A DNA stretch of 37,978 nucleotides from Candidatus Aminicenantota bacterium. Lineage in GTDB: Archaea; Nanobdellota; Nanobdellia; Woesearchaeales; JAFCCF01. Below are positions 7,241 to 29,204 of this stretch, in pieces (within the stretch, counting starts at the first letter, position 1; every line of letters starts with the position of its first letter). The stretch covers positions 1 to 37,978 of the forward strand of contig JAFCCF010000004.1 of the NCBI GenBank assembly GCA_017610325.1, read 5' to 3'. The notes under the pieces were generated by a model, which saw only the letters and a program-made list of their open reading frames with translations, did no database searches and had not been told where the DNA came from. The position numbers and the translations under genes were made by a program.

Positions 7241-8772
7241 TGACAGATTATAACCTTGTAAGGATGTACATCATCTTCATAGCACTGGTCATATTTTTCA
7301 TACTTTCATTCAAAAGCCTGAAACAGCAGTTCAAGGGTGTGAACAAATCTGCCTGGGTGCTGCTCCTCATAATCTTCGTGCTTGCGCTTGTTCTCAGGCT
7401 TTCGGTGCCTCATTATTACAAGCTGTACATGGACGAGCCAAGGTATGTTGAGGTTGCCAAGAACATTGTGCTGCATGACCAGGCGCAGATTATGAAGTAT
7501 TACGGGGAATCAACATTCAAGTTCTTTGAGCCGTTCCATCCCATTGCCTGGCCATTCCTGATGTCAGTTGCCTTCAGGGTCTTTGGCATAAATGGCTTTG
7601 TTGCAGGTTATCTCAACACCATTATCAGCAGCCTGGCTGTGCTTATGGTATTCCTCTTTAGTTATCTACTGTTCAAGCGTGAGGATGTTGGGTTATGGGG
7701 TGGCTTGCTCCTTGCCTTAAATCCATTGCATGTGCACTGGTCCACAAGCGCAGGTGTTAATGCACCCTCGCTGTTTTTCATGCTCCTTTCACTTACAGCA
7801 TTTATCATATACTGTAGAAATAGGGATATAAAATTGCACCTGCTCGCAACATTCAGCTTTCTTTTCTCTGTGTTAATGAGGTTGGAATATGTAATGGTAT
7901 TTGTTCTGGTTGCATCAATCTACATGCTACACTGGAAGACCATAAAAAAAGAGGTAAGGAAACTAAGGTTCTGGTTGCCCTGGCTTGGCATTTTGCTGTT
8001 CTACAGGAATTATTACACAACCCTAATGCTTTTCATCAACAAGCTTAGGATAAATGGGGTAGCCCTGGTATTTGCAAGCAGTTCAGGCAGCTTTGGGCTG
8101 TCAAAGATTGTGTCTAACATTGGTTTGTTGTTTCAACACATCCTGAAAACCTACTCCCTAATGCTATTGGTGTTCATGTTAATCGGAATCTATGCAATAT
8201 TCAGAAAGAGAAAATCAGTCTTGCTGATGTTGCTTATATGGTTTGTTGTTTTCTCCGGCTTTTACATGAGCTATGTACAGTTCCAAGAAAGGCACCTATT
8301 ATTCCCAATGTTGGCGTTCCAGTTAGTTATTGCCTTTGGCATATCTTATGTGCTCAAGCTCAAGCAGGTAAAAAGATATAGGCAGCTTCTTGTAGCGGTG
8401 CTGGTAATCTTGATTGTAATCTTTATGGTGCCCAGGCTTTTGCTAATCTATAACATCACTGACTCCAATCTGCTCCAGACACAGGTTCCTGAGATTACAG
8501 AAGCAGCAGCACAGGATTGTTATATTGTGGCAAGCAGGCCAGCGCTGGTAAGCAGCTCAGCAGACCTGAAAGTTATCCCGCTTGATTATTTCCTTGCAAA
8601 TGATTTGGTGTTTTCCGGGCTGGCTGGTGAGTGTGTGCTGTTGTACAATGGCTCATACCTTTCCTCAGAAGACTTCCATGCAGTAAATGAGAAGTATGTT
8701 CTTGAAACATTCATTGACTTTAGAAGAGGAAACACTGTCTTTAGCCTTTACAATATCTCAGCTAAAGGTTGA
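7240..8772 (+). CDS. Multi-pass membrane GT-C/PMT-ArnT-like glycosyltransferase
   Basis: Many TM segments; luminal acidic motif YKLYMDEPRYVEVAKNIV typical of PMT_2-like families; ATGA overlap with upstream gene. Confidence 0.7.
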   Translation: MTDYNLVRMYIIFIALVIFFILSFKSLKQQFKGVNKSAWVLLLIIFVLALVLRLSVPHYYKLYMDEPRYVEVAKNIVLHDQAQIMKYYGESTFKFFEPFHPIAWPFLMSVAFRVFGINGFVAGYLNTIISSLAVLMVFLFSYLLFKREDVGLWGGLLLALNPLHVHWSTSAGVNAPSLFFMLLSLTAFIIYCRNRDIKLHLLATFSFLFSVLMRLEYVMVFVLVASIYMLHWKTIKKEVRKLRFWLPWLGILLFYRNYYTTLMLFINKLRINGVALVFASSSGSFGLSKIVSNIGLLFQHILKTYSLMLLVFMLIGIYAIFRKRKSVLLMLLIWFVVFSGFYMSYVQFQERHLLFPMLAFQLVIAFGISYVLKLKQVKRYRQLLVAVLVILIVIFMVPRLLLIYNITDSNLLQTQVPEITEAAAQDCYIVASRPALVSSSADLKVIPLDYFLANDLVFSGLAGECVLLYNGSYLSSEDFHAVNEKYVLETFIDFRRGNTVFSLYNISAKG

Positions 8773-9733
8773 GAACCGCTTTCTTATCTGTAATCTTTTC
8801 ACCAGGCATAGGCCTAAGCTCATCTACACCATAATGTTCTTCATAGTCATCCCACACTCCTTCGCATACAGGGTCAAACTTGCACTGCTTGCAGTTTTCA
8901 TGCTTCCTCTTCATCTCGCCCCGCCTTGTTTTCACAAAGTCAAGGTCTTGGTAGTCCACCCCCCTGAGCTGCATCCTTTCTGTTCGTATAAGCTCAGAGC
9001 TGAAGCGCTCCCTGTCCTTCATGTAGCAGTATGGCACAGACTCTATATTCATTGTCATTCCAAGCTCTATTGTCTTGTCAATCATGTCATATATGTGCTG
9101 CTCAGCCTCGCTGTACTTTGGAACAACATCATAGAAATACTTGCTCGCATTTCCCTGGCCATGCGGAAAAGCCACATTGAGATTTTTTACTCCATATTTG
9201 TGCAGAAGGATTATAGTATCAACAAGATGGGCAAGGTTAATCTTTGATATCACAATCTTTCCATTCACCCTGCAGTTGCCTGTAGCAAGCAGCCTCTTGA
9301 TGCCAGCCATGGTTTGTTTAAATGAACCCTTTACTCTCGTTATCTTGTCATGCACCTCTGCATTTGGGCCGTGTATTGCAATAGAATAGCTGATGAAAGC
9401 AATCTTTGAAACCCTTTCAGTGAATTCCTTATAATAAAACATCCTGCCATTTGTCTGCATTTGAATCTCAAAACCAAGCTGCTTTGCATATTCAATAATG
9501 TCAAACACATCGCCCCTTATAGTTATCTCGCCACCAGTAAGGACAATCACCTTTACACCATCCTGCTTTGCCTGGTTAAGGTCAATCTTTATCTCTTCGA
9601 AGGTGCGGTCAATGCGGATGCCCTGCTGCTCCATTCTTCTTCTGTTGCCTGCTATAACACAATGTATACAATCATTGTTGCATCCCCAGCCAACCTTTAT
9701 GTCAGCATACGGTATCTGGTCAAGCTCTACCAT
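8762..9733 (-). CDS. Radical SAM protein, possibly HxsC-like (paralogue of 10310..11281)
   Basis: ADIKVGWGCNNDCIHCVIA (CxxxCxxC), VLTGGEITIRGDVFDII, IQMQTNGRMFYYKEF, C-terminal CKQCKFDPVCEGVWDDY. Confidence 0.85.
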   Translation of the reverse strand: MVELDQIPYADIKVGWGCNNDCIHCVIAGNRRRMEQQGIRIDRTFEEIKIDLNQAKQDGVKVIVLTGGEITIRGDVFDIIEYAKQLGFEIQMQTNGRMFYYKEFTERVSKIAFISYSIAIHGPNAEVHDKITRVKGSFKQTMAGIKRLLATGNCRVNGKIVISKINLAHLVDTIILLHKYGVKNLNVAFPHGQGNASKYFYDVVPKYSEAEQHIYDMIDKTIELGMTMNIESVPYCYMKDRERFSSELIRTERMQLRGVDYQDLDFVKTRRGEMKRKHENCKQCKFDPVCEGVWDDYEEHYGVDELRPMPGEKITDKKAVLNL

Positions 9734-9735
9734 TT

Positions 9736-10323
9736 TTATTTTATCGCCTTTATGTATATGGTTGTTTTATCAGGAGACTTTTTGCTCACCTGCTTGAGAA
9801 CCTTGCTGAAACCTGCTGTTCTGAGCGCCCTTTCAATGCGGTTGAACCAGAATCCATTAAGGTAATTTGCACGAGAGCCATACACAGTGTCAATCACAGC
9901 TTTTGAATCTTTAATATCTCCCTTGTTAAACCTGATTATAGTGTCAATTATGTCAGGCACCATGATGTGCAGCATCCCCCCTTTCTTTAGCACCCTACAC
10001 CAGTTGCCAAGCGCCTTCTGGTACAGGTTTCTCTCTATGGTGTTAAGTGTATTGTTAGCTAGTATTGTGTCAACAGAACCTATCTTGAAAAATCCAAGTG
10101 TTTTTATATCTCCAACTATCTGCGGCGAGTCAAAGAAATCAGAACCAACCCTGATTGCTTTCTGCTTTAGCTTGTTTCCCAGCTCAATAGACTCAGAACT
10201 CACATCAATGAATATCTTATTCTTATCAATAGCAATATTCTGGAAAACACTGTTCTCTTCTTCCTTAGGTTTATCCTTCGAAAAAAAATTATTAATTACC
10301 TCTCTCATGCTAACCTCTACCAA
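9736..10323 (-). CDS. Methyltransferase-like protein with degenerate SAM-binding motif
   Basis: VDTILANNTLNTIERNLYQKALGNWCRVLKKGGMLHIMVPDI resembles the C-terminal half of class I methyltransferases; no clear GxGxG. Confidence 0.55.
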   Translation of the reverse strand: MVEVSMREVINNFFSKDKPKEEENSVFQNIAIDKNKIFIDVSSESIELGNKLKQKAIRVGSDFFDSPQIVGDIKTLGFFKIGSVDTILANNTLNTIERNLYQKALGNWCRVLKKGGMLHIMVPDIIDTIIRFNKGDIKDSKAVIDTVYGSRANYLNGFWFNRIERALRTAGFSKVLKQVSKKSPDKTTIYIKAIK

Positions 10324-11281
10324 GGTTCAGCCACTCTGGGGGAATCTGCGTGATTTTTTCCCCAGCAACAGGCGTGAACTCGTCAAAACCCCTTCTTTCA
10401 GGGTACTCAATCCAGGGACCTTCGCATATCATATCATACCTGCAGTTCGCACATTTAGGACCCTTTTTCTTGGCAATGTTCTTTCTTGTATGCTCATAGC
10501 TTAGATTAATGCCAACCATGTCTCTCAGCTGGCTTGCAACCATCCTCAGCTCTGCTGCCCTCTTCTCCTCTCCAACCAGGAAGCAGAGCGGCACAGCCTC
10601 AAAATCAACCCACATCCCGAGCCTCTTAGATGTTTCAATTGCCTTGTCAATGTTTGGCTTCAGCTCACTATATGTCGGGATAACCTCCTCAAAGTAAAGC
10701 AGGGCATTTCCCTGGCCGTGTGGGAATGCAATATTAACACTTCTAGAACCAAATTTGTGGAACAGCTCCAGAATCTCAGCCAGGTACTCTTGATTATACC
10801 TTGAGATGACTATCTTGCCGCTGACTAGCTGGTTATACTTTTTCAGGTTCTTTATTCCATTTATTGTCTGATCAAATGCTCCCTTTGCTTTTGAAACCTT
10901 ATCATGAATCTCTGGGTTAGGGCCATTCAATGCCACAGTATATGCAGCAGGGCATGCATCTACAATCTTCTTTGTGAATTCTTCATAAGAGAACATCCTA
11001 CCATTTGTCTGGATGCCAACCATCATGCCAAGCTGCCTGGCATGCCTGAGTATTTCAAATATATCCTTCCTGATAGATATCTCTCCTCCAGTCAGCACAA
11101 TCTTTGATATACCGTGGTTTTTAGCCTGCTCCATCTGCTCTAAAACTTCTTGCGTGGAGCGGTCTATATTCTTTCCCTCACTCTTTAGCTGGCGCCGCTT
11201 GTCAGCTATCACGCAATGGATACAGTTATTATTACACGAAAATCCGGTTTTTATATCTGCGTATTTATCTCCTTCAGCCAT
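10310..11281 (-). CDS. Radical SAM protein, possibly HxsC-like (paralogue of 8762..9733)
   Basis: ADIKTGFSCNNNCIHCVIADKRR, VLTGGEISIRKDIFEIL, GIQTNGRMFSYEEF, AFPHGQGNALLYFEEVIPTYSE, CANCRYDMICEGPWIEY. Confidence 0.85.
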   Translation of the reverse strand: MAEGDKYADIKTGFSCNNNCIHCVIADKRRQLKSEGKNIDRSTQEVLEQMEQAKNHGISKIVLTGGEISIRKDIFEILRHARQLGMMVGIQTNGRMFSYEEFTKKIVDACPAAYTVALNGPNPEIHDKVSKAKGAFDQTINGIKNLKKYNQLVSGKIVISRYNQEYLAEILELFHKFGSRSVNIAFPHGQGNALLYFEEVIPTYSELKPNIDKAIETSKRLGMWVDFEAVPLCFLVGEEKRAAELRMVASQLRDMVGINLSYEHTRKNIAKKKGPKCANCRYDMICEGPWIEYPERRGFDEFTPVAGEKITQIPPEWLNLGRG

Positions 11282-11294
11282 TTTAACCTGTCAT

Positions 11295-12731
11295 CTATTT
11301 CCCATTTGTCTTCCTTAATCCTGCCCAGCCAAGCAGAATATCCCTGTCTTCCTTGGAATAAAGAATCTTTTTGAATATGTACTCGATCATGCCCTTTCTT
11401 ATTTTGCATTCATGGTCAACTGCAAGTTTTGGCACGACACTGCCCTGCGCCCCGTATGTTGCAACCATACATGTTCCGCAGTACGGATGCCAGGGGCATG
11501 CATCACACATTGAGGCAAAGCCAGATGTCAGGCTGACAATGTCCTTTGCCTTAATCATGATATCTTTATAAGAATGGGTATTGACATTTCCCATCTTGAA
11601 TATATCAAATGACCTTGACTCATCACAGGTGTAGATATCACCATTATAATCATATGAAATCTGCCCAATCAGCGCTCCGCAGGGCGACCCAAAGCATGTA
11701 AATCCTCTTGTCCTATTTGTCAGGAGTCTCCAGAGTATCACCTGAATTTTGCTGTCAAGGAATTTCTTACCTTTCTTGTTAAGCTCAAGCTCATAATCAA
11801 ATACCTTTTTCCAGAATTCAAGGAACTCCTCTGAAGAGTACCCAATTTGTTCCCAGAGCTGTTTTGCAAAACCAGCAAAGTTCAGGTTCCTTGACATTAT
11901 GTTTGAGAAGCCATTCTTCAGGTATTCATCAATAATCTCCCTTGGGTAATTGAGCGATTCTTTTGTTATTGTTGGCAGTGCAGAGAAATTAAAGTCCTTC
12001 TTCAGCTCTTTGAACTTTTTTATAACCTCATCATATGAACTCTTGTGCCCAAAATATTTTCTCTGCTTGTCATGAAGCTTTTTCGGCCCGTCAAGGGATG
12101 AGCAAAACCTGATATTGTTCTTTTTCATGTAATCCTTTATCTCATCTGTGAATCCAACTGCGTTTGTGACAATTATGTACATGAGTTTCTTATTATAGCG
12201 CTTGTTAAGTTCTTGTGAGTATTCATATATGTATTTTATAACCGGGAAATTGAGGAGCGGTTCACCACCCTGGAACTCAATTGTAATATCTCTGGCAGGT
12301 GACTCAAAGAGGAACTCAACTACCTTCTTGGCATCCTCCTTACTCATGTCATACCCTTCTGCCTCTAGCGGCTTTGACTTTGCATGACAGTATACGCATG
12401 TGTGGTTGCATCTTAGGGTTACTGTGATAATGTGCAGACCTGCACCTCTAGATACATGGGCAAACTTGTTCCTGAGCTGCCGCGTGATTGACTCAATATT
12501 GTTCAGCGTTATTATAACTCCTTTTTCTTCCAAAAGCTTGTACAGCTGAGGATCTTCCCTTATCTTATTGTATCTTAGAAGGTCAAACTCTTCTTTGTTC
12601 AGGCACACCCACCCCCCGTGGTCTGTGGTGACAACTATATGTTCTTTATCAAATTTGTGGGTCAGGTACCTATTTACCTCAAACTCTTCTACTTTAACCG
12701 GTCCTTTATCTTCATAAAAACTAAAAGCCAC
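11295..12731 (-). CDS. hxsB-like: HxsB-like radical SAM/SPASM maturase (ORF track start 12791; GTG at 12731 preceded by AGAGGT looks better)
   Basis: LHIITVTLRCNHTCVYCHAKSKPLEAEGYDMSKEDAKKVVEFLFESPARDITIEFQGGEPLLNFPVIKYIYEY; C-terminal SPASM Cys set CGALIGQISYDYNGDIYTCDESR...CDACPWHPYCGTC. EFQGGEPLLNF and overall layout match remembered HxsB family. Confidence 0.75.
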   Translation of the reverse strand: MAFSFYEDKGPVKVEEFEVNRYLTHKFDKEHIVVTTDHGGWVCLNKEEFDLLRYNKIREDPQLYKLLEEKGVIITLNNIESITRQLRNKFAHVSRGAGLHIITVTLRCNHTCVYCHAKSKPLEAEGYDMSKEDAKKVVEFLFESPARDITIEFQGGEPLLNFPVIKYIYEYSQELNKRYNKKLMYIIVTNAVGFTDEIKDYMKKNNIRFCSSLDGPKKLHDKQRKYFGHKSSYDEVIKKFKELKKDFNFSALPTITKESLNYPREIIDEYLKNGFSNIMSRNLNFAGFAKQLWEQIGYSSEEFLEFWKKVFDYELELNKKGKKFLDSKIQVILWRLLTNRTRGFTCFGSPCGALIGQISYDYNGDIYTCDESRSFDIFKMGNVNTHSYKDIMIKAKDIVSLTSGFASMCDACPWHPYCGTCMVATYGAQGSVVPKLAVDHECKIRKGMIEYIFKKILYSKEDRDILLGWAGLRKTNGK

Positions 12732-12741
12732 TTTTACCTCT

Positions 12742-12975
12742 TTACTGGTTTTGGTTTTGCATAATTCCCAGGAGGCAATCAAAAAATTCATAGCCTATAT
12801 TTGACAATTTGTCTATGTTCTTTGGTATTATGACAACCTTAGTGCTGTGATCTTCAACAGCAACATCACCAAAAGCCTTGAACTCTTCTGCTGCCCTGGA
12901 AACTATCTGTGGTGGATAGATTATTGTGTTAATCTTGATAACACATCTGTTGTCTTCAACCTTGACATTTTTCAT
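12742..12975 (-). CDS. hxsD-like: HxsD-like small protein (77 aa)
   Basis: VIKINTIIYPPQIVSRAAEEFKAFGDVAVEDHSTKVVIIPK...LSNIGYEFFDCLLGIMQNQ; same layout as 13003..13575 N-terminal domain. Confidence 0.6.
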   Translation of the reverse strand: MKNVKVEDNRCVIKINTIIYPPQIVSRAAEEFKAFGDVAVEDHSTKVVIIPKNIDKLSNIGYEFFDCLLGIMQNQNQ

Positions 12976-13002: not shown

Positions 13003-13575
13003 TCAGTCATCCCTTCTGGTGTTGTCCTTCATGATTCCCTTTGGATCTGCCACCCGGTCTTCTTCAGGAACCTGCACCTTTCTTATGCCCATTGGGTCAG
13101 GGACATTATCTGTCGGTCTTGGTCCTGGACCTCCTGGTCCCGGGCCACTTGGCTGAGGGAATCTCTGTGGCATTGGTTGTGGCGGGCCTGGCCCTCTCCT
13201 TGGCGGCTCTGGTCCTTTCCTTGGCGGCTCTGGTCCCCTTACATTGCCCCTAAGCGCGCTCTCCATGAGAGCTTCCCTAATTCTCTTGGTCCTTGTTGCC
13301 TGTATTGTATAGATTGAGTAGTTTATTAGCTCATCATTAAAGTTATAACCTATCTCTTTCAAATTCTTTTCACTAATCTCCCCATCAGCTTTTGGTCTTA
13401 GTTCAACCAGCACCTCGCTGTTTGGGTCACCATCAATAATAACATGGACCTTGTCCAGCATTGCATATGCTGCAGAGTAAATCACGCTCACTGGATAAAA
13501 TTTAGGATTCACAGATATAACTAAAAAATTTTTATGGATTTCAATATTATCCAAAATACTTTCTTTCTCACCCAT
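13003..13575 (-). CDS. hxsD-like: HxsD-like protein with Pro/Gly-rich C-terminal tail (190 aa)
   Basis: FLVISVNPKFYPVSVIYSAAYAMLDKVHVIIDGDPNSEVLVELRPK...IGYNFNDELINYSIYTIQATRTKRIREALMESAL followed by GPEPPRKGPEPPRRGPGPPQP tail. Confidence 0.7.
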   Translation of the reverse strand: MGEKESILDNIEIHKNFLVISVNPKFYPVSVIYSAAYAMLDKVHVIIDGDPNSEVLVELRPKADGEISEKNLKEIGYNFNDELINYSIYTIQATRTKRIREALMESALRGNVRGPEPPRKGPEPPRRGPGPPQPMPQRFPQPSGPGPGGPGPRPTDNVPDPMGIRKVQVPEEDRVADPKGIMKDNTRRDD

Positions 13576-13632: not shown

Positions 13633-13930
13633 CTTTGGTTTTAATTCATAGTTGGCCAAACTTGCTGTTAGCACGCTACTTTTTCTTCTATATTTTCATC
13701 ACCTATCTTTAACGAAACTACCTTTAAATCAAAAACTTTAAATATGAGGTGCCTACTTATATGGTTTAGAATAAGTGATAGAGATAATTGGGCGAGTATA
13801 TTTGTCTAATTAAGGGAAGTGTGGCGCAATAAATGAGTATTAAAAAGAGGTTTGTTTTATTAAGTAGACTTATGTATTTTTCTATCTCAAATAATCATTA
13901 TCATAGTTTTTATTCCATTAACCTGTTACG

Positions 13931-14105
13931 TTCTTTGCGCCACACTTCTGTCTCTGCACATCAGCAGAGGCAGAAGTTTTTAATTTCCCGTTCTTTGCGC
14001 CACACTTCTGTCTCTGCACATCAGCAGGGGCAGAAGTTTTTTCCTTCCTATTCATTGCGCCACACTTCTGTCTCTGCACATCAGCAGGGGCAGAAGTTTT
14101 TATTT
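13931..14105. repeat. Three tandem 60-bp repeats, each with a 13-bp imperfect hairpin followed by T-run
   Basis: TTCTTTGCGCCACACTTCTGTCTCTGCACATCAGCAGRGGCAGAAGTTTT at exactly 60-bp spacing (13931, 13991, 14051 with TTCATTG in the third). Confidence 0.9.
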
Positions 14106-14162
14106 TCAGGCGCTTTAAAATATTTGTTTGAATCAAGCTGATAAAAAAGAAGGTGTTGACAG

Positions 14163-14312
14163 ATTAACAAAAAAGAGGCAGAGAGTAATAAGGCTTTTAC
14201 AGATATCAGGAGGCCTACCCTTCTCTCACACATAAAGAAAGCAATCACTTCTTTCGTTAAGGAAGAGGAAGCCTCAATTAACAAGCATGCTCTGCTTAGC
14301 GTTGGTAGTTTT
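14163..14312 (+). other. In-frame 5' extension encoding a leader-like segment (no ATG/GTG/TTG start in frame)
   Basis: Open frame from TGA at 14157: (I)NKKEAESNKAFTDIRRPTLLSHIKKAITSFVKEEEASINKHALLSVGSFMAAGVIAS; GAAGGTG 8-9 nt upstream of ATT 14163; TTTAAAATA TATA-like box at about 14114. Confidence 0.5.
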
Positions 14313-17093
14313 ATGGCTGCAGGTGTCATTGCATCACGGGTTGTTGAGGCATCTCAGGTTGTTGTCACGCACGACCATAGTGATATAGGTCATAGTAATT
14401 GCACATATCCAGACACCCATGACAACTGCCATACACAGAGCCACAGCAACTGCGCTTATCCAGAAACCCATGACAACTGTACATATCCAGACACCCATGA
14501 CAACTGCCATACTGTGAGTCATAGCAACTGCCATTCTAACTGCTCCTATCCAGATTATCACAACAACTGTTCATACCCTGAATCAACTTCACCTGACACA
14601 CACGACAACTGCCATACTGAGAGCCATAGCAACTGCCACTCTAACTGTACTTATCCTGACACGCACGACAACTGCCACTCTAACTGTACTTATCCAGAAT
14701 CCACTGCTCCAGAGACGCATGACAACTGCCATACTGTGAGCCATAGCAATTGCCACTCTAACTGTTCTTATCCAGATTCCCACAACAACTGCTCATACCC
14801 AGAATCAACTTCTCCTGACACGCATGACAACTGCCACACGCAGAGCCATAGCAACTGCCATTCTAACTGTGGTTATCCAGAATCCACTTCACCTGACACG
14901 CACGACAACTGTTCGTATCCAGAATCCACTGCTCCAGAGACGCATGACAACTGCCATACTGAGAGCCACAGCAACTGCCATTCTAACTGCTCCTATCCAG
15001 AATCGCACGACAACTGCCATTCTAACTGTACTTATCCAGAATCCACTTCACCTGACACGCACGACAACTGCCATACTGTGAGCCATAGCAACTGCCACTC
15101 TAATTGTAGTTATCCTGAGTCACACTCAAACTGCCACTCTAACTGCTCATACCCAGAATCCACTTCACCTGACACGCACGACAACTGCCACACGCAGAGC
15201 CACAGCAACTGCCACTCTAATTGTGGTTATCCAGAATCCACTTCACCTAATACGCACGACAACTGCTCATACCCAGAATCCACTTCACCTAACACGCACG
15301 ATAACTGCCACACTGTGAGCCACAACAACTGCCACTCTAATTGTGGTTATCCAGATTCCCACAACAACTGCTCATACCCTGAATCAACTGCTCCAGAGAC
15401 GCACGACAACTGCCATACTGTGAGCCACAGCAACTGCCACTCTAATTGTGGTTATCCAGATTACCACAACAACTGCAGTTATCCGCAGTCCCACGACAAC
15501 TGCCATACCTCAGGTCACAACAACTGCAGTTATCCGCAGTCCCACGACAACTGCCATACCGCAGGCCACAATAACTGTGGTTATCCAGAATCGCACAGCA
15601 ACTGCCACAGTAACTGTTCCTATCCAGAATCCACTGCCCCAGGTTACCATAACAACTGCCACTCAAACTGCTCTTATCCAAATTCCGTTAATCCAAACAC
15701 CCACAACAACTGCCACTCAAACTGCTCTTATCCAAATTCTGGTAATCCAAACACCCACAACAACTGCACCTATGTGAATGCCCACAGCAACTGCCACTCT
15801 AACTGTACTTATCCAGCATCCCAATCTCCAGCTGCTCATTCTAACTGCCACAGTAACTGTTCCTATCCAGAGTCCACTGCTCCAAACACCCACACTAACT
15901 GCCACTCTAATTGTGGTTATCCAGACTCCACTGCCCCAAATTACCACAACAACTGTAGCTATCCGCAGTCCCATGATAACTGCCATACCTCAGGCCACAA
16001 TAATTGTAGTTATCCAGAATCGCACGACAACTGCCATACCTCAAGCCACAATAACTGCTCCTATCCGCAGTCCCACGACAACTGCGCATACCCTGAATCC
16101 ACTTCCCCAAACACCCATGACAACTGCCATACTGAGAGCCATAGCAACTGCCACTCTAACTGTACTTATCCTGACACGCACGACAACTGCCACTCTAACT
16201 GTACTTATCCAGAATCCACTTCACCTGATACGCACGATAACTGCCACACTGAGAGCCACAGCAACTGCCACTCTAACTGTACTTATCCAGAATCAACTTC
16301 TCCAAATACGCACGACAACTGCTCTTATCCAGAATCCACTTCACCTGACACGCACGATAACTGCCACACTGAGAGCCACAGCAACTGCCATTCTAATTGT
16401 GGTTATCCAGAATCCACTTCACCTGACACGCACGATAACTGCTCTTATCCAGAATCCACTTCTCCAGAGACGCACGACAACTGCCATACTGAGAGCCACA
16501 GCAACTGCCACTCTAACTGCTCCTATCCAGAATCGCACGACAACTGCCATTCTAACTGTACTTACCCAGAATCCACTGCTCCAGAGACGCATGATAACTG
16601 CCATACTGAGAGCCACAGCAACTGCCATTCTAACTGCTCCTATCCAGAATCACACGACAACTGCTCATACCCGGACTCAACTTCACCTGACACGCACGAT
16701 AACTGCCACACTGAGAGCCACAGCAACTGCCATTCTAACTGTACTTACCCAGAATCCACTGCTCCAGAATCGCACGATAACTGTACATACCCTGACTCAA
16801 CTTCACCTGACACACACGACAACTGCCATACTGAGAGCCACAGCAACTGCCACTCTAACTGTTCCTATCCAGAATCACACGACAACTGCTCATACCCTGA
16901 ATCAACTGCTCCAGAGACGCACGACAACTGCCATACTGTGAGCCACAGCAACTGCTCCTATCCTGAGTCGCACTCAAACTGCGAATCTCCTGATACTCAC
17001 GATAATTGTCACACCCAGAGCCACAGCAACTGTACATATCCTCAGGAAGACCCATCGCACACATCATCCATTGATGTTACAAACACGGAGTAG
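14313..17093 (+). CDS. Giant H-x-N-C repeat protein; candidate substrate/precursor of adjacent radical SAM maturases (true start probably upstream, see findings)
   Basis: 926-aa ORF of modules HSNC, HTESHSNC, SYPESHDNC, TYPESTSPDTHDNC; every Cys seen is in H-x-N-C. Confidence 0.9.
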   Translation: MAAGVIASRVVEASQVVVTHDHSDIGHSNCTYPDTHDNCHTQSHSNCAYPETHDNCTYPDTHDNCHTVSHSNCHSNCSYPDYHNNCSYPESTSPDTHDNCHTESHSNCHSNCTYPDTHDNCHSNCTYPESTAPETHDNCHTVSHSNCHSNCSYPDSHNNCSYPESTSPDTHDNCHTQSHSNCHSNCGYPESTSPDTHDNCSYPESTAPETHDNCHTESHSNCHSNCSYPESHDNCHSNCTYPESTSPDTHDNCHTVSHSNCHSNCSYPESHSNCHSNCSYPESTSPDTHDNCHTQSHSNCHSNCGYPESTSPNTHDNCSYPESTSPNTHDNCHTVSHNNCHSNCGYPDSHNNCSYPESTAPETHDNCHTVSHSNCHSNCGYPDYHNNCSYPQSHDNCHTSGHNNCSYPQSHDNCHTAGHNNCGYPESHSNCHSNCSYPESTAPGYHNNCHSNCSYPNSVNPNTHNNCHSNCSYPNSGNPNTHNNCTYVNAHSNCHSNCTYPASQSPAAHSNCHSNCSYPESTAPNTHTNCHSNCGYPDSTAPNYHNNCSYPQSHDNCHTSGHNNCSYPESHDNCHTSSHNNCSYPQSHDNCAYPESTSPNTHDNCHTESHSNCHSNCTYPDTHDNCHSNCTYPESTSPDTHDNCHTESHSNCHSNCTYPESTSPNTHDNCSYPESTSPDTHDNCHTESHSNCHSNCGYPESTSPDTHDNCSYPESTSPETHDNCHTESHSNCHSNCSYPESHDNCHSNCTYPESTAPETHDNCHTESHSNCHSNCSYPESHDNCSYPDSTSPDTHDNCHTESHSNCHSNCTYPESTAPESHDNCTYPDSTSPDTHDNCHTESHSNCHSNCSYPESHDNCSYPESTAPETHDNCHTVSHSNCSYPESHSNCESPDTHDNCHTQSHSNCTYPQEDPSHTSSIDVTNTE

Positions 17094-17107: not shown

Positions 17108-18190
17108 ATGAACATAATCACTATATTATCTCTCTTAAGGCCCTACATATTGTTTGCAATAATCATTGCTCTTGGAATTATAGCTTCATACACTGATGTT
17201 AAAAAAAGGAGGATTGAGAACAGGTTTGTGATTCCTGCCTTTATAATTGGGCTGCTTATCAACCTAACTTACTGGGGCATGGATTTTCTGGGGCACTACC
17301 TCTTTGGCGTTCTCTTTGCGCTGTTTGTGACTTTTGTGTTGTGGTATGTAGGGTTCTGGAATGCAGGGGATGGCAAGCTTTTTCTTGCATTTACCAGCCT
17401 GATTCCAGCAGCGTTGTTGTATGGCGGTGTTGCGCAGCTTCACTCATACTGGATAATCTTCTACACATTTGTACCTGTGTTCTTTGTTCTTCTGGTGCTA
17501 CTGATAATTCATACCAGGTGGAAAGACATAAAATATGTATTAAAGGAGTTTATCAAGCCACAGGCAATATTCCTTGTGATGCTGGCTTTCTTTGCATTTC
17601 AGTGGATTATCCATATCTTCAACGATGCAACCGGCATTACCCTTAACTTCTTTATCAGCGTGCTAATCCTGTTCTTTTTCTTTGAGGCTATGGAAAAGAT
17701 ATTACCGTTCAGGATAATGTCAATATTTGTTATTGTTGCAATCTCCAGGTTTATCATTGACTTCCGCACCATTTTCACATTTGATTTTGTTATAGTCTTT
17801 TTTCTTCAATTCTCTGTTTTCATAATAATGGTATATTTCATACTCCATCTTGCCTATGTGAAATATGGTAAGCATGCTAAGATCCAAGACCTTAAGCCAG
17901 GCATGTTACTGTCTGAAATCATCTACAAGAAGGGAAAGGTTTACGCAACCAGGCCAAATGTGCAGATAAGCCTCTTCATGTTCCTCAGGACAAAGGTGAA
18001 AGAAAAGCCGCTTATTGAGATTACTTCCAATGGTTTGACTAGGGAAGATATTGAACTGCTAAAAAGATTGCACAGGGAAAAAAAGCTGGAGGTTGGCTCT
18101 TTGCTTGTTCAGATGAGGATACCATTTGCACCTTTCCTGTTCCTTGGCGTAGTGTTATATATACTTACAGAACTTCTTCATGTTTTTTAG
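17108..18190 (+). CDS. A24-like (prepilin/preflagellin-type) membrane aspartic peptidase
   Basis: N-terminal TM region with SYTDVKKRRIENRFVIPAF and later FWNAGDGKLFLAF (two Asp motifs of A24 peptidases); 14 bp after the repeat gene. Confidence 0.75.
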   Translation: MNIITILSLLRPYILFAIIIALGIIASYTDVKKRRIENRFVIPAFIIGLLINLTYWGMDFLGHYLFGVLFALFVTFVLWYVGFWNAGDGKLFLAFTSLIPAALLYGGVAQLHSYWIIFYTFVPVFFVLLVLLIIHTRWKDIKYVLKEFIKPQAIFLVMLAFFAFQWIIHIFNDATGITLNFFISVLILFFFFEAMEKILPFRIMSIFVIVAISRFIIDFRTIFTFDFVIVFFLQFSVFIIMVYFILHLAYVKYGKHAKIQDLKPGMLLSEIIYKKGKVYATRPNVQISLFMFLRTKVKEKPLIEITSNGLTREDIELLKRLHREKKLEVGSLLVQMRIPFAPFLFLGVVLYILTELLHVF

Positions 18191-24987: not shown

Positions 24988-26372
24988 ACATTGCATTAAT
25001 ATATCCGAGGCTAAAATATCCGTCAGGCGACCCTCCACTTGGTCTTGCCTCTCTTGCATCTTCTGTTCTAACTAATCTCAAAAATGTTGAAGTGAATCTG
25101 ATTGACCTTACATTTCACGCAAGCCTTGATTATCTGAAAGATATTTTCAGGAAACATAAATATGATTTGGTCTGCCTGACAGCAGCCACAATCTTTATGC
25201 CAGATGTGCTCAAGATAGCTAAGCTGTGCAAAAAGTTGCAGCCTGGCTGTAAGATTATTATTGGCGGGCCCCATCCCTCATCTGACCCAGAGGATGCAAT
25301 AGGGCATAGGGAAATTGATGGAATTGTGATAGGTGAGGCTGAAGAAACCTGTGTTGAGATTGTAAAGGCATTTCTGGACAATGGGGAACTGTCAACTGCC
25401 AGGGGATTCTGGTTCAAGAAAGGAAAAAAGATTATCAGGAGTGAAAGAAGAGAGCCAATCAAAGACCTTGACAAGGTGCCTTTTCCAGCATGGCACCTGC
25501 TAGAGATGGAGAAATACTTTAAGTATTGGTTCCAGATGGACTGTGTATCACTTAACCTGAGAGGCACATCAATGGTTGCTTCCAGGGGCTGCCCCTATAA
25601 ATGCTCATTTTGCCAGCCTACCTTGTGGAACATGTTTGGAAGAAAAATCAGGTACAGGAGCACAGGCAATGTTGTTGATGAGATTGCTGAACTGAAAAAA
25701 AGGTATAATGTGAGTGCTGTGTGGTTTGTGGATGACACATTTACAATTGATAAAAGATGGGTCAAGGAATTCTGTGAAAAGCTGATTAACCGCAGGCTTA
25801 ATATTGTGTGGGGCTGTACAATACGAGCTAATCTTGCTGATAAAGACTTGTTGAGGCTCATGAAAAAATCAGGCTGCAGACTAATTGGAATTGGAATTGA
25901 ATCTGCAAGCCAGAGAATCCTGGATGAAATATATAATAAGAATATTAAGGTAGCTCAGGTTAAGGAGGCAGTCAGGGTAACGCACTCCTTAGGCATCAAA
26001 CTCAGGGGGCAGTTCATGATAGGTGCTCCAACCGAGACCCTGGAAGAGATTAAAAGGACAATAAGGTTTGCCTATAAGCTGGACCTTGATGAGGCAACTT
26101 TCTCGATAACATCCCCATTGCCGCACACATTCCTATATGAAATGGCTAAGAAAAAGGGCTGGCTTAATGTTAAGGGCTATTCAAGCTTTGATTATTATGA
26201 TAATTATGCATTTAAGCCAACAGCTGGCCTGGACACTAAAGCCCTTATCAAGCTGAAGAGAAAGGCGTTCATTAAGTTTTATTCCAGGCCAAGAAGGTTC
26301 ATTGCCCTGGTCAAGAACTTGCTTAACCCAAGGGCATTCAGGCACAACATGCTCAAGCTTAAGAGGTTTTGA
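24984..26372 (+). CDS. B12-binding-domain radical SAM protein (ORF track start 24972)
   Basis: MNIALIYPRLKYPSGDPPLGLASLAS...IIGGPHPSSDPEDAI...ASRGCPYKCSFCQP...GQFMIGAPTET; ATGA overlap with upstream gene. Confidence 0.9.
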   Translation: MNIALIYPRLKYPSGDPPLGLASLASSVLTNLKNVEVNLIDLTFHASLDYLKDIFRKHKYDLVCLTAATIFMPDVLKIAKLCKKLQPGCKIIIGGPHPSSDPEDAIGHREIDGIVIGEAEETCVEIVKAFLDNGELSTARGFWFKKGKKIIRSERREPIKDLDKVPFPAWHLLEMEKYFKYWFQMDCVSLNLRGTSMVASRGCPYKCSFCQPTLWNMFGRKIRYRSTGNVVDEIAELKKRYNVSAVWFVDDTFTIDKRWVKEFCEKLINRRLNIVWGCTIRANLADKDLLRLMKKSGCRLIGIGIESASQRILDEIYNKNIKVAQVKEAVRVTHSLGIKLRGQFMIGAPTETLEEIKRTIRFAYKLDLDEATFSITSPLPHTFLYEMAKKKGWLNVKGYSSFDYYDNYAFKPTAGLDTKALIKLKRKAFIKFYSRPRRFIALVKNLLNPRAFRHNMLKLKRF

Positions 26373-27850
26373 TGAAGAAGGGAAAGTGGTATAAGGACTG
26401 GCACAATATCCTCCTAGTTGTTCTGATAGTTGCATATTTCATTATCTTCTCATGTTATTCAATCCAGAGATATAATGCATACGGTGCAGGGGCATATGAC
26501 ATGGGTGCGTATATGCAGGTGCTTTGGAATGCAGGACATGGGAATGGATTAGTGAGTAATATTGAGTTCACGCACCACTTTGGTGAGTATTTTGAGCCAA
26601 TCTTATTTGTATTTGTTCCCCTCTATAAATTATTTGAGGGCCCTTTCCTGCTTTTTATCCTGCAGTCTGGTTTGATTGCATTGGGTGCCATTCCCTTGTA
26701 CCTGCTGGCTGTTATGAAGCTCAAAAATAAGATTGCTGGCTTGGTGTTTGCAGCTGCATATCTATTGTATCCATCTTTGCAGTATGTAACTTTATTTGAC
26801 TTTCATCCTGTTGCACTTGCAATTCCATTTCTGTTGTTTATGGTTTATTTTCTTGAGAAAAAGAACTATAAGCTGTACTTTGTGTTCATGCTGCTCTCGC
26901 TCAGCTGCAGGGATGATGTTGCACTTGTTGTGCTGTTCTTCTCACTGTACCTTATCTTTGTTAGGAAAATGAGGACGATAGGGGTTGCGACACTTGTTAT
27001 TAGCATAATATGGTTTGTGATAGCCTTCAGTGTAATCAGGCCAGCATTTGGCGGAACAGTTGTTACACTTGATGACCGCTATGAGACTTTTGGAACAACA
27101 TTTGGAGAAATTGTATATTCTGCCATAACAAAGCCTGGCTTAACATTCTCAACTATATTTACTGCTGAGAAAATCAGGTATATGCTTAACCTGCTCAGCC
27201 CAGCCATGTTTCTGCCGCTGCTGAGCCCTGCTGTTTTGCTTGTGACAGTGCCTTCATTGATGCAGAACCTGCTCTCTTCAAAAGTTCACACATTCTCCTC
27301 GCAGTTCCACTATGACAGCCTTATTATTCCTTTCCTGTTTATTGCAGCAGTGTATGGATTGCATAACCTTATGTTATTTCTTTCCAAGAAAAAAGAGCTC
27401 AAGAAGAATATTAAGACAATCCTTGCAATTATTCTGGTTGCACTGCTGCTCAAGTCTGTTTTAGCATTCTATGTCAGTTCTCCTATTGGCCCTAATGCCT
27501 CTTTAAAGAATAAGTTCATTGTTACTGAGCATCACAGGATTGGTAATGAGATACTTGAAGATATACCTGAAGATGCTTCAATCCTCACAACAACATCTAT
27601 CATGCCGCATGTTGCCCATCGCAAAGATGCATTTATATTTAACCGCGGTGCTGAAGGCCAATATGTGCTGTTTGACATAACCAAGCCTTTCCCTTACTCT
27701 GATGAGCAACTAAAACAGAAGATTATATCATATGTAAGGCAGGATGATTATGGGGTAGTGCTTGTCAGGGATGGGTATGTGATGTTCAGGAAAGGAGTAG
27801 CTGATGATGATAATGTGTTGGATAAGCTGAATAAGGGGGGTTTTAGTTGA
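26369..27850 (+). CDS. DUF2079-like multi-pass membrane protein
   Basis: YNAYGAGAYDMGAYMQVLWNAGHGNGLVSNIE, many TM segments, paralogous to next gene. Confidence 0.75.
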   Translation: MMKKGKWYKDWHNILLVVLIVAYFIIFSCYSIQRYNAYGAGAYDMGAYMQVLWNAGHGNGLVSNIEFTHHFGEYFEPILFVFVPLYKLFEGPFLLFILQSGLIALGAIPLYLLAVMKLKNKIAGLVFAAAYLLYPSLQYVTLFDFHPVALAIPFLLFMVYFLEKKNYKLYFVFMLLSLSCRDDVALVVLFFSLYLIFVRKMRTIGVATLVISIIWFVIAFSVIRPAFGGTVVTLDDRYETFGTTFGEIVYSAITKPGLTFSTIFTAEKIRYMLNLLSPAMFLPLLSPAVLLVTVPSLMQNLLSSKVHTFSSQFHYDSLIIPFLFIAAVYGLHNLMLFLSKKKELKKNIKTILAIILVALLLKSVLAFYVSSPIGPNASLKNKFIVTEHHRIGNEILEDIPEDASILTTTSIMPHVAHRKDAFIFNRGAEGQYVLFDITKPFPYSDEQLKQKIISYVRQDDYGVVLVRDGYVMFRKGVADDDNVLDKLNKGGFS

Positions 27851-29204
27851 AGAAAAGAAAAGTATCATGGCACTTTGCTGTGCTTATTTTGCTGATACTT
27901 GCATATTTTGCTGTATTTTCATATTTCACAGTCCAGAGATACAATGCCTATGTGCCAGCAGCCTATGACCTTGGTGTATGGACACAGACCTTGTGGAATG
28001 CTGCACATGGCAATGGCTTTGTGAATTCAATAGAGTTCCTGCCGCATTTTGGCTTGCATGTTAACCTTATCCTTATTCCATTTGTACCCTTGTACTGGTT
28101 GTTTGGAACTCCAGTGTTTCTGCTCATGTTGCAATCAGCAATGCTTGCAATAGGTGCCCTTCCATTATACCTGCTGGCTGTTATGAAACTCAAGAATAAG
28201 ATTGCTGGCCTGGTGTTTGCAGCTGTTTACCTGCTCTATCCATCACTGCACAATATTAATTTATTTGATTTTCATGCAATTGCACTTGTTATACCTTTTT
28301 TATTGTTCATGTTCTATTTTTTTGAAAAAAAGAATTACAGGGCAATGTTTATGTTTGCTGTTCTTGCACTTAGCTGTAAGGAGGATGTTGCTCTGGTGGT
28401 GCTATTCTTTGGCCTGTATGTTCTGCTCATCAGGAAACTGAGAAAAATAGGTGTTGCTGTCGCTTGCCTAGCTTTGCTGTGGCTAATTATGTCATTTTTT
28501 GTTATTATTCCAAGCTATGGCTCATCTTTTGAGCTGTCCAGCGACAATCGCTATTCTAAGTTTGGCAACACCCTCACAGAGGTAGCAGTTAATGTTATTG
28601 CAAAGCCTGGCTTGACTCTCTCTACTTTATTTTCACCTGGCTTCTCATAGCATTGCCTGTTTTTATGCAGAACATGCTGTCAAACCAGCCTGCAATGTAC
28701 AGCTCTATGTACCACTATGACTGTACTATTATTCCGTTTGTGTTTATTGCTGGTATATTCGGGTTAGGTTATCTGATGTCAAAGCTGTCAGGCAAGAAAC
28801 TGAAGAGCCGTGTGCTCATGATTATCCTTGTTATTGTACTGCTAAAGTCATCTGCTGCTTTCTATTATGGCAGTGGTCTTGGGCCTAGCAAGTACACGCC
28901 AGGCATTTACGCTGTTACTGAGCATAACCAGCTTGCCAATGAGGTGATTAAGGAGATTCCTGAAGATGCGTCTGTGCTCACAACTACTTTTATCATGCCG
29001 CATATAGCAAACAGGAAAGATATATTTGTGTTTCCGCAAAAGGTTGAGGCAGATGTTGTGCTGTTTGACCTGAGCATTACACCATATAAACTTACCCCAA
29101 AAACATATAAGGAAGAACTGTATAAATACAACAAGAGCAGTGATTACGAGCTGGTGCTTGAGAAGGGAGATTTTATCATGTTCAAAAAGAGGTTATTATC
29201 ATAA
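27847..29204 (+). pseudogene. DUF2079-like paralogue disrupted by net 67-nt deletion/frameshift near 28634 (ORFs 27847..28650 and 28653..29204)
   Basis: First ORF aligns with the N-terminal ~260 aa of 26369..27850 and stops after STLFSPGFS; the following frame continues LLIALPVFMQNMLS aligning with paralogue LLVTVPSLMQNLLS. Confidence 0.7.

What the first reader, a model, noticed from the sequence alone, without database searches (positions are those of the whole stretch)
14313..17093. About 100 cysteines, all in H-x-N-C, arranged as 4/8/9/14-residue modules
By hand count about 101 Cys, each preceded by H-[SDNT]-N. Modules are HSNC (4), HT[EVQ]SHSNC (8), [SGT]YP[ED]SH[DSN]NC (9) and [STG]YPESTSPDTHDNC-like (14). 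After the N-terminal hydrophobic segment there are almost no large aliphatic residues or Lys/Arg. The rigid spacing argues for a chemical or metal-ligand lattice, not a globular fold. Options: modified RiPP-like polymer, metal-binding or redox fibre, disulfide-linked surface coat.
Basis: seen in the sequence. Interest (0 to 1): 0.85.

Follow-up and report, generated by a model that had tools for sequence, protein, structure and literature searches.

The report
Giant His-x-Asn-Cys radical-SAM substrate protein
An uncultured DPANN archaeon carries a gene for a roughly 960-residue exported protein made of 101 His-x-Asn-Cys units, which is very probably the oversized substrate of a little-understood radical-SAM peptide-modifying gene cluster (the "His-Xaa-Ser" system) and makes the chemistry of that cluster testable.

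Summary
Across the 101 copies H, N and C never change although their third codon positions vary freely. The protein is longer than reported. An in-frame extension upstream of ATG 14313 matches the leader peptides of archaeal HxsA precursors (E=7e-7 with a profile that excluded the window). Divergently upstream lie HxsD, HxsB (above NCBIfam's cut-off) and two HxsC-like radical SAM enzymes. Immediately downstream is an A24 prepilin-type peptidase, found beside HxsB in 38 of 49 related loci. It is therefore best read as the HxsA-type substrate of an archaeal His-Xaa-Ser cassette whose repeat is HxNC instead of HxS. Partial homologues in two other genomes keep HxNC in every complete repeat but use other spacings (13/15 and 10/11/13). 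HxsB's nearest solved structure is CteB, a thioether-forming maturase. A thioether or His-centred modification is plausible but not shown. New variant of a known, biochemically uncharacterised kind.

The parts
14217..17093 (+). HxsA-type precursor protein (leader + H-x-N-C repeat + tail); start codon unresolved, frame open from 14160
   Evidence: No ATG/GTG/TTG in frame before 14313; an AGGAGG ribosome-binding-like site at 14208-14213 sits just before the point where relatives' leaders begin
14232..14354 (+). Leader: IKKAITSFVKEEEASINKHALLSVGSFMAAGVIASRVVEAS (charged N-region, conserved Gly, hydrophobic segment, A-x-A-like end)
   Evidence: E=7e-7 against a profile of 19 relatives without the window; NCBIfam HxsA3 E=5.4e-4 (19.7 bits, cut-off 65)
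14391..17033 (+). 101 H-x-N-C units with Cys spacings 4/8/9/14
17034..17090 (+). C-terminal tail TYPQEDPSHTSSIDVTNTE, similar to the tails of two homologues (PSHTDSITVSNTED; PPTHDDSITVTNTE)
17108..18190 (+). A24 prepilin-type (EppA-like) membrane peptidase, candidate leader peptidase of the cassette
   Evidence: Peptidase_A24 1.4e-11; Arc_PepC 1.1e-9; beside HxsB in 38 of 49 loci
13003..13575 (-). HxsD
   Evidence: TIGR03976, 46.5 bits (cut-off 50), E=3.5e-12; found in 44 of 49 HxsB loci
11295..12791 (-). HxsB radical SAM/SPASM maturase with an N-terminal RRE-like (beta3-alpha3) domain
   Evidence: TIGR03978, 419.9 bits, cut-off 370; AF2 model; nearest PDB entry CteB 5WGG by fold (9.3e-24) and by sequence (2.4e-27)
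10310..11281 (-). HxsC-like radical SAM enzyme, copy 1
   Evidence: HxsC4 137 bits, HxsC 97 bits (below cut-offs)
9736..10323 (-). Methyltransferase-like protein between the two HxsC genes
   Evidence: Methyltransf_11, 31.7 bits (cut-off 21.2)
8762..9733 (-). HxsC-like radical SAM enzyme, copy 2
   Evidence: HxsC4 132.6 bits, HxsC 84 bits (below cut-offs)
13929..14107 (+). Three 60-bp tandem copies of a 14-bp hairpin with a T-run, in the gap between hxsD and the precursor gene
   Evidence: (z = -11); only these copies in the genome

Best explanation
The ORF encodes the precursor (substrate) protein of an archaeal His-Xaa-Ser (Hxs) radical-SAM cassette, in which the usual His-x-Ser repeat has been replaced by His-x-Asn-Cys and expanded to 101 copies. 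Proposed mechanism. (1) Inferred: the about 40-residue leader is bound by the RRE-like N-terminal domain of HxsB, helped by HxsD. (2) Inferred: HxsB and the two HxsC-like radical SAM enzymes move along the low-complexity core and modify each H-x-N-C unit; the likeliest chemistry is a Cys-based thioether or a His/Asn-centred bond. (3) Inferred: the hydrophobic segment after the leader takes the chain across the membrane and the dedicated A24 peptidase removes the leader, perhaps after the near-invariant Gly. (4) Inferred: the product is an extracellular or surface-attached modified polymer. Shown here: the repeat, its selection, the leader homology, the conserved cassette and the HxNC homologues. 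Every enzymatic step is inferred.
For: Radical SAM genes divergently upstream: HxsB above the curated cut-off, plus HxsD and two HxsC-like proteins. In 49 related loci HxsB sits with HxsD in 44, A24 peptidase in 38 and a leader-bearing HxsA in 35. Upstream in-frame sequence matches the HxsA leader profile built without the window, E=7e-7, best of 251 window ORFs, and NCBIfam HxsA3 independently. Homologues with HxNC in every complete repeat lie directly upstream of the A24 gene in two genomes of family f43, whose HxsB forms a 100/99-supported clade with the window's. pN = 0 at H, N and C over 101 copies. The motif has a source: H-x-N-x-[LIVM] occurs in 17 of 24 archaeal HxsA cores against 1.2 in shuffles, and single HSNC, HHNC, HNNC or HGNC occur in several. 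HxsB's closest solved structure is the thioether-forming maturase CteB by sequence and by fold. Export: hydrophobic segment in all 20 leaders; cousins fuse the same leader and HxS repeats to Hint or S74 fibre-chaperone domains.
Against: No canonical start codon exists for the leader, so a non-standard start or a base error must be assumed. The precursor falls below NCBIfam's HxsA cut-offs and lacks HxS repeats. In two close relatives (G042, G109) with HxsB/C/D no HxNC protein was found, although one contig begins right at hxsD. No product of any Hxs system was found in the searchable literature, so the chemistry is unknown. Standard HxS targets lack Cys, so thioether formation cannot be the ancestral reaction unless another nucleophile is used.
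Confidence: 0.78

Rival explanations
1. Cys/His-rich metal-binding or metal-storage exoprotein: the HxNC units bind soft metal ions directly through thiolate and imidazole, and the radical SAM genes next door act on something else.
For: 101 Cys and 127 His with no Lys, one Arg and many acidic or polar spacers. H, N and C are invariant while the spacers are free, as expected for ligands on a flexible chain. Spacing is free between homologues.
Against: Leader and cassette tie it to HxsB/D and the A24 peptidase. CxxC-type motifs are absent. The strictly conserved Asn is not an obvious ligand. Relatives of the precursor with the same leader often lack Cys (HGS repeats).
Confidence: 0.12
2. Disulfide- or thioether-linked structural surface fibre or coat: the protein is an adhesin or sheath and radical-SAM modification is secondary to cross-linking between chains.
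For: Exported, low-complexity, very long chain. Cousins of the precursor carry Peptidase_S74, the intramolecular chaperone of trimeric fibres, directly after HxS repeats, and Hint domains.
Against: No S74 or Hint domain and no recognisable anchor in the window protein. Most archaeal HxsA cores are only about 40-150 aa. No structural evidence.
Confidence: 0.3
3. Covalent haem or other cofactor carrier (multihaem-like wire).
For: Cys and His alternate throughout, and C-x(n)-C-H strings occur.
Against: No CxxCH can exist because Cys spacing is never 3; no cytochrome c maturation gene was recognised among the proteins inspected.
Confidence: 0.02
4. Non-functional microsatellite-like repeat read by chance as an open frame.
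For: DNA is tandemly repeated.
Against: pN = 0 at H, N and C against saturated synonymous change; homologues in two other genomes keep the motif with different DNA and a similar tail.
Confidence: 0.01

Closest known systems
His-Xaa-Ser (Hxs) system, precursors HxsA/HxsA3/HxsA4 (NCBIfam TIGR03979, NF038309, NF038313)
   Same: HxsB above cut-off, HxsD and HxsC-like neighbours; same leader type (charged helix-like N-region, conserved KxG, hydrophobic segment); His-centred repeat in the core.
   Different: Repeat is H-x-N-C instead of H-x-S; 101 units in about 960 aa (most archaeal relatives have about 40-150 aa after the leader); Cys in every unit; two HxsC-like genes with a methyltransferase-like gene between them.
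Ranthipeptides/SCIFF (CteB, PapB maturases)
   Same: HxsB is nearest to CteB among solved structures and to PapB/SCIFF maturases among other families; Cys-containing substrate.
   Different: HxsB is far below the PapB and SCIFF cut-offs; the substrate is a long repeat protein without the six-Cys SCIFF pattern or the Cys-x3-Asp pattern.
Archaeal prepilin peptidase EppA (A24 family)
   Same: A24 domain and archaeal C-terminal domain, GDxK catalytic motif.
   Different: Only 56 bits against a cut-off of 450 for EppA; sits in an Hxs cassette, not recognised beside pilin genes.
Bufferins (MNIO-modified Cys-containing copper-chelating RiPPs, PMC12452194)
   Same: Exported Cys-containing modified peptide with a signal-like leader, as a functional analogy only.
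   Different: No MNIO enzyme recognised here; radical SAM enzymes instead; unrelated leader.

Membership tests
His-Xaa-Ser system | HxsB radical SAM/SPASM maturase | tested here: met
   TIGR03978, 419.9 bits, cut-off 370
His-Xaa-Ser system | HxsD | tested here: inconclusive
   TIGR03976, 46.5 bits against 50, E=3.5e-12; position and homology consistent
His-Xaa-Ser system | HxsC radical SAM maturase | tested here: inconclusive
   Two HxsC-like proteins; HxsC 97 and 84 bits against 267.9, HxsC4 137 and 133 against 500
HxsA-type precursor | HxsA-family leader at the N-terminus | tested here: met
   E=7e-7, profile without the window; NCBIfam HxsA3 E=5.4e-4 but 19.7 bits against cut-off 65
HxsA-type precursor | His-Xaa-Ser repeats | tested here: not met
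   4 HxS against 101 HxN after the leader: hence 'HxsA-type substrate variant', not HxsA proper
HxsA-type precursor | Post-translational modification of the repeat by HxsB/HxsC | not testable with these tools
   No biochemical data; no Hxs product found in the searchable literature
Ranthipeptide/SCIFF | PapB or SCIFF maturase score over cut-off | tested here: not met
   PapB 161/340 bits, SCIFF 132/425 bits
c-type cytochrome (multihaem) | CxxCH motifs | tested here: not met
   Cys spacing is never 3
Metallothionein or zinc-ribbon-like protein | CxC/CxxC clusters | tested here: not met
   Smallest Cys spacing is 4; no Pfam or NCBIfam family for the 926-aa ORF
RiPP with RRE-guided maturation | RRE in the maturase or as a partner | tested here: inconclusive
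   HxsB model residues 42-109 show beta3-alpha3 before the SAM barrel and the alignment to CteB spans 467 columns; HxsD itself is not winged-helix and has no significant PDB match

The most novel reading that the evidence does not exclude
About 100 identical radical-SAM modifications (for example Cys thioethers or His-centred cross-links, one per H-x-N-C) are laid down along one exported chain, giving a covalently stapled archaeal protein polymer, possibly metal-binding or fibre-forming: a RiPP-like giant instead of a small peptide, released by a dedicated prepilin-type peptidase.
Probability: 0.35. Interest if true: 0.87.

Novelty: new variant of a known kind. Interest (0 to 1): 0.64.

Why it matters
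The His-Xaa-Ser system is defined only by bioinformatics; no product was found in the literature searched. A substrate with 101 equivalent units, strict selection on exactly three residues (H, N, C) and free spacers says which residues matter, and gives a strongly amplified readout for mass spectrometry. It also ties an A24 prepilin-type peptidase to the archaeal Hxs cassette, suggesting how these precursors are processed and exported, and suggests that DPANN archaea (small, often host-dependent cells) invest in giant modified exported proteins.

Tried and rejected
Search of 85,488 species with HxsB alone found no relative; with the HxsD clade alignment it found only five loci, at least four of them the same family-f43 contigs. 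The 82-aa window repeat found nothing in 295 genomes of the order because homologues changed the spacers. HxsD as the RRE: rejected by its predicted fold (beta strands, one short helix and a 41-residue helix; best PDB match E=0.014). Link between HxsC presence and Cys in HxsA: p=0.10, not pursued. The leader E-values may be inflated because the window could have entered those profiles; one search is the clean test. Cytochrome-like reading rejected (no CxxCH). Rigid-spacing lattice rejected (spacing not conserved). No Rfam match in the upstream hairpin region. No PDB sequence match to the repeat protein. Low-complexity DNA artefact rejected by the codon test.

Full report
1. The observation. 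The ORF at 14313-17093(+) is real and the hand count was right: 926 aa, 101 Cys, all in H-x-N-C (HSNC 51, HDNC 36, HNNC 13, HTNC 1), with Cys spacings 4 (27), 14 (27), 9 (23) and 8 (23) and no other. At DNA level it is a set of tandem repeats with periods near 105-120 bp. A codon test separates protein-level selection from DNA copying: across 101 copies the H, N and C codons show only synonymous differences (CAC 75/CAT 26; AAC 91/AAT 10; TGC 72/TGT 29; pN = 0), whereas the x position varies (pN 0.54). The 8-residue module is a tetrad lacking Cys (HT[EVQSA][SG], 23 copies) followed by HSNC.

2. The true N-terminus. The frame is open back to 14160 without an ATG, GTG or TTG before 14313. The upstream residues ...HIKKAITSFVKEEEASINKHALLSVGSFMAAGVIASRVVEAS... 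match leader peptides found next to HxsB in related genomes. A profile built only from 19 relatives picks this ORF out of 251 window ORFs with E=7e-7. NCBIfam's HxsA3 model hits the same region with E=5.4e-4, below its curated cut-off. An AGGAGG motif lies at 14208-14213, just before the point where relatives start (sequence), but the in-frame codons there are not standard starts. A non-canonical start or a base error in the assembly is possible; this is unresolved.

3. The neighbourhood. On the minus strand upstream lie HxsD (13003-13575), HxsB (11295-12791; 419.9 bits, cut-off 370), an HxsC-like radical SAM (10310-11281), a methyltransferase-like protein (9736-10323) and a second HxsC-like radical SAM (8762-9733). 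Directly downstream is an A24 prepilin-type peptidase with the archaeal C-terminal domain (17108-18190). The window is a whole 38-kb contig of a 1.12-Mb draft genome. Named relatives are DPANN archaea (Nanoarchaeota/Woesearchaeota).

4. Relatives. HxsB occurs in 39 of 382 genomes sampled from the phylum and HxsA-type leaders in 59 of 362 genomes of the order. In 49 HxsB loci, HxsD is near in 44, the A24 peptidase in 38, a leader-bearing precursor in 35 and an HxsC-like gene in 20 (lower bounds, since many contigs are cut). The A24 peptidase is thus a regular part of the archaeal cassette; that association is seen here, and I know of no earlier description (own knowledge). Most precursors are short: leader, hydrophobic stretch, then cores such as ...GTHGHHASHSSHGSHGSHGSHGSHGSW (L050). 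Their cores share H-x-N-x-[LIVM] in 17 of 24 proteins against 1.2 in shuffled sequences, a likely ancestor of the H-x-N in H-x-N-C. Single HxNC tetrads already occur in some (L063, L080, L144, L148, L150).

5. Homologues of the repeat protein. In genome G147, directly upstream of the A24 gene and cut by the contig end, lies ...THNSETGTAHTNCTHNSETGTAASHTNC...PSHTDSITVSNTED. In G190 lies ...SHSNNLHTNCSHSNNLHTNC...PPTHDDSITVTNTE. Every complete repeat there is H-x-N-C, but Cys spacing is 13/15 and 10/11/13. Their HxsB proteins group with the window's at 100/99 support. A pattern written for this second spacing style matched only these two genomes and one lone site among 362, and the window's own repeat was found nowhere else in 295. 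The HxNC type therefore looks rare. In two further members of the clade (G042, G109) no HxNC gene was found; the G109 contig begins 120 bp before hxsD.

6. What it probably does. HxsB's AF2 model (mean pLDDT 85.7) has an RRE-like beta3-alpha3 domain, a radical SAM barrel and a SPASM region. Its best PDB match is CteB, the thioether-forming SCIFF maturase (fold E=9.3e-24; sequence E=2.4e-27), followed by anSME and TigE. HxsD has a confident fold but no significant PDB match and is not a winged helix. The best-supported model is leader recognition by HxsB, modification of each H-x-N-C by HxsB/HxsC, membrane passage through the hydrophobic segment, leader removal by the A24 peptidase, and display or release outside. 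The association with the cassette is shown. Modification, its chemistry, processing and location are inferred. The near-invariant Gly before the hydrophobic stretch is a candidate cleavage site by analogy with prepilins (own knowledge). Fusions of the same leader to Peptidase_S74 (L141, L149, with HxS repeats) and to Hint domains (L135, L136, L137, L139) in other members fit surface fibres or self-processing exoproteins, but the window protein has neither.

7. Constant spacing is a property of this one gene's repeat history, not of the family, so it cannot be a functional requirement at the level claimed. The conserved thing is the tetrad.

8. Known or new. The cassette belongs to the His-Xaa-Ser system by HxsB. 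The precursor is not HxsA proper, because the defining HxS repeats are absent and the curated scores are not reached; it is an HxsA-type substrate variant. Searches of the held literature found no characterised Hxs product (PMC9062424 calls HxsB/HxsC maturation putative). The finding is a new variant of a known but uncharacterised kind, interesting chiefly because it makes the question of what Hxs enzymes do experimentally accessible.

Noticed in passing
window 13929-14107: Three 60-bp tandem copies, each a perfect 14-bp hairpin followed by a T-run (terminator-like, z = -11), between hxsD and the precursor gene; no Rfam match and no other copies in the genome.
   Followed up: partly
L141 7973-8575(-), L149 1005-1580(-): HxsA-type leader and HxS repeats fused to a Peptidase_S74 intramolecular chaperone domain, suggesting trimeric fibres.
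   Followed up: partly
L135, L136, L137, L139: HxsA-type leaders (some with HxS repeats) fused to Hint/intein-like domains, suggesting self-cleaving precursors.
   Followed up: partly
L145 7674-8000(+): Precursor with the HxsA leader whose core is CGCGCSCGC..., Cys/Gly instead of His/Ser, beside A24, HxsD and an HxsB-like gene.
   Followed up: no
L140 6379-7466(-): Two adjacent leader-bearing precursors with 43 and 31 His in H-x-T/H-x-S repeats, from the clade sister to the HxNC clade: long repeat expansion has happened more than once.
   Followed up: no
24 archaeal HxsA cores (L049-L081): Conserved H-x-N-x-[LIVM] motif (17 of 24, expected 1.2), often followed by a THxH-like motif; not in the curated HxS definition.
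   Followed up: partly
L065 4452-4919(+), L066 7571-8020(+), L072 5048-5518(-): Conserved about 150-aa ORF ending in [NK]PFKFV[IV]RT-like ...W, beside a radical SAM gene that the window also has at its left edge (3-1532); possibly a second substrate.
   Followed up: no
window 13180-13236: Pro-rich repeated tail in HxsD (GPEPPRRGPGPPQP...), a 21-bp tandem repeat.
   Followed up: no
window 26369-29204: Tandem similar membrane proteins; the second copy appears split into two ORFs (27847-28650 and 28653-29204).
   Followed up: no
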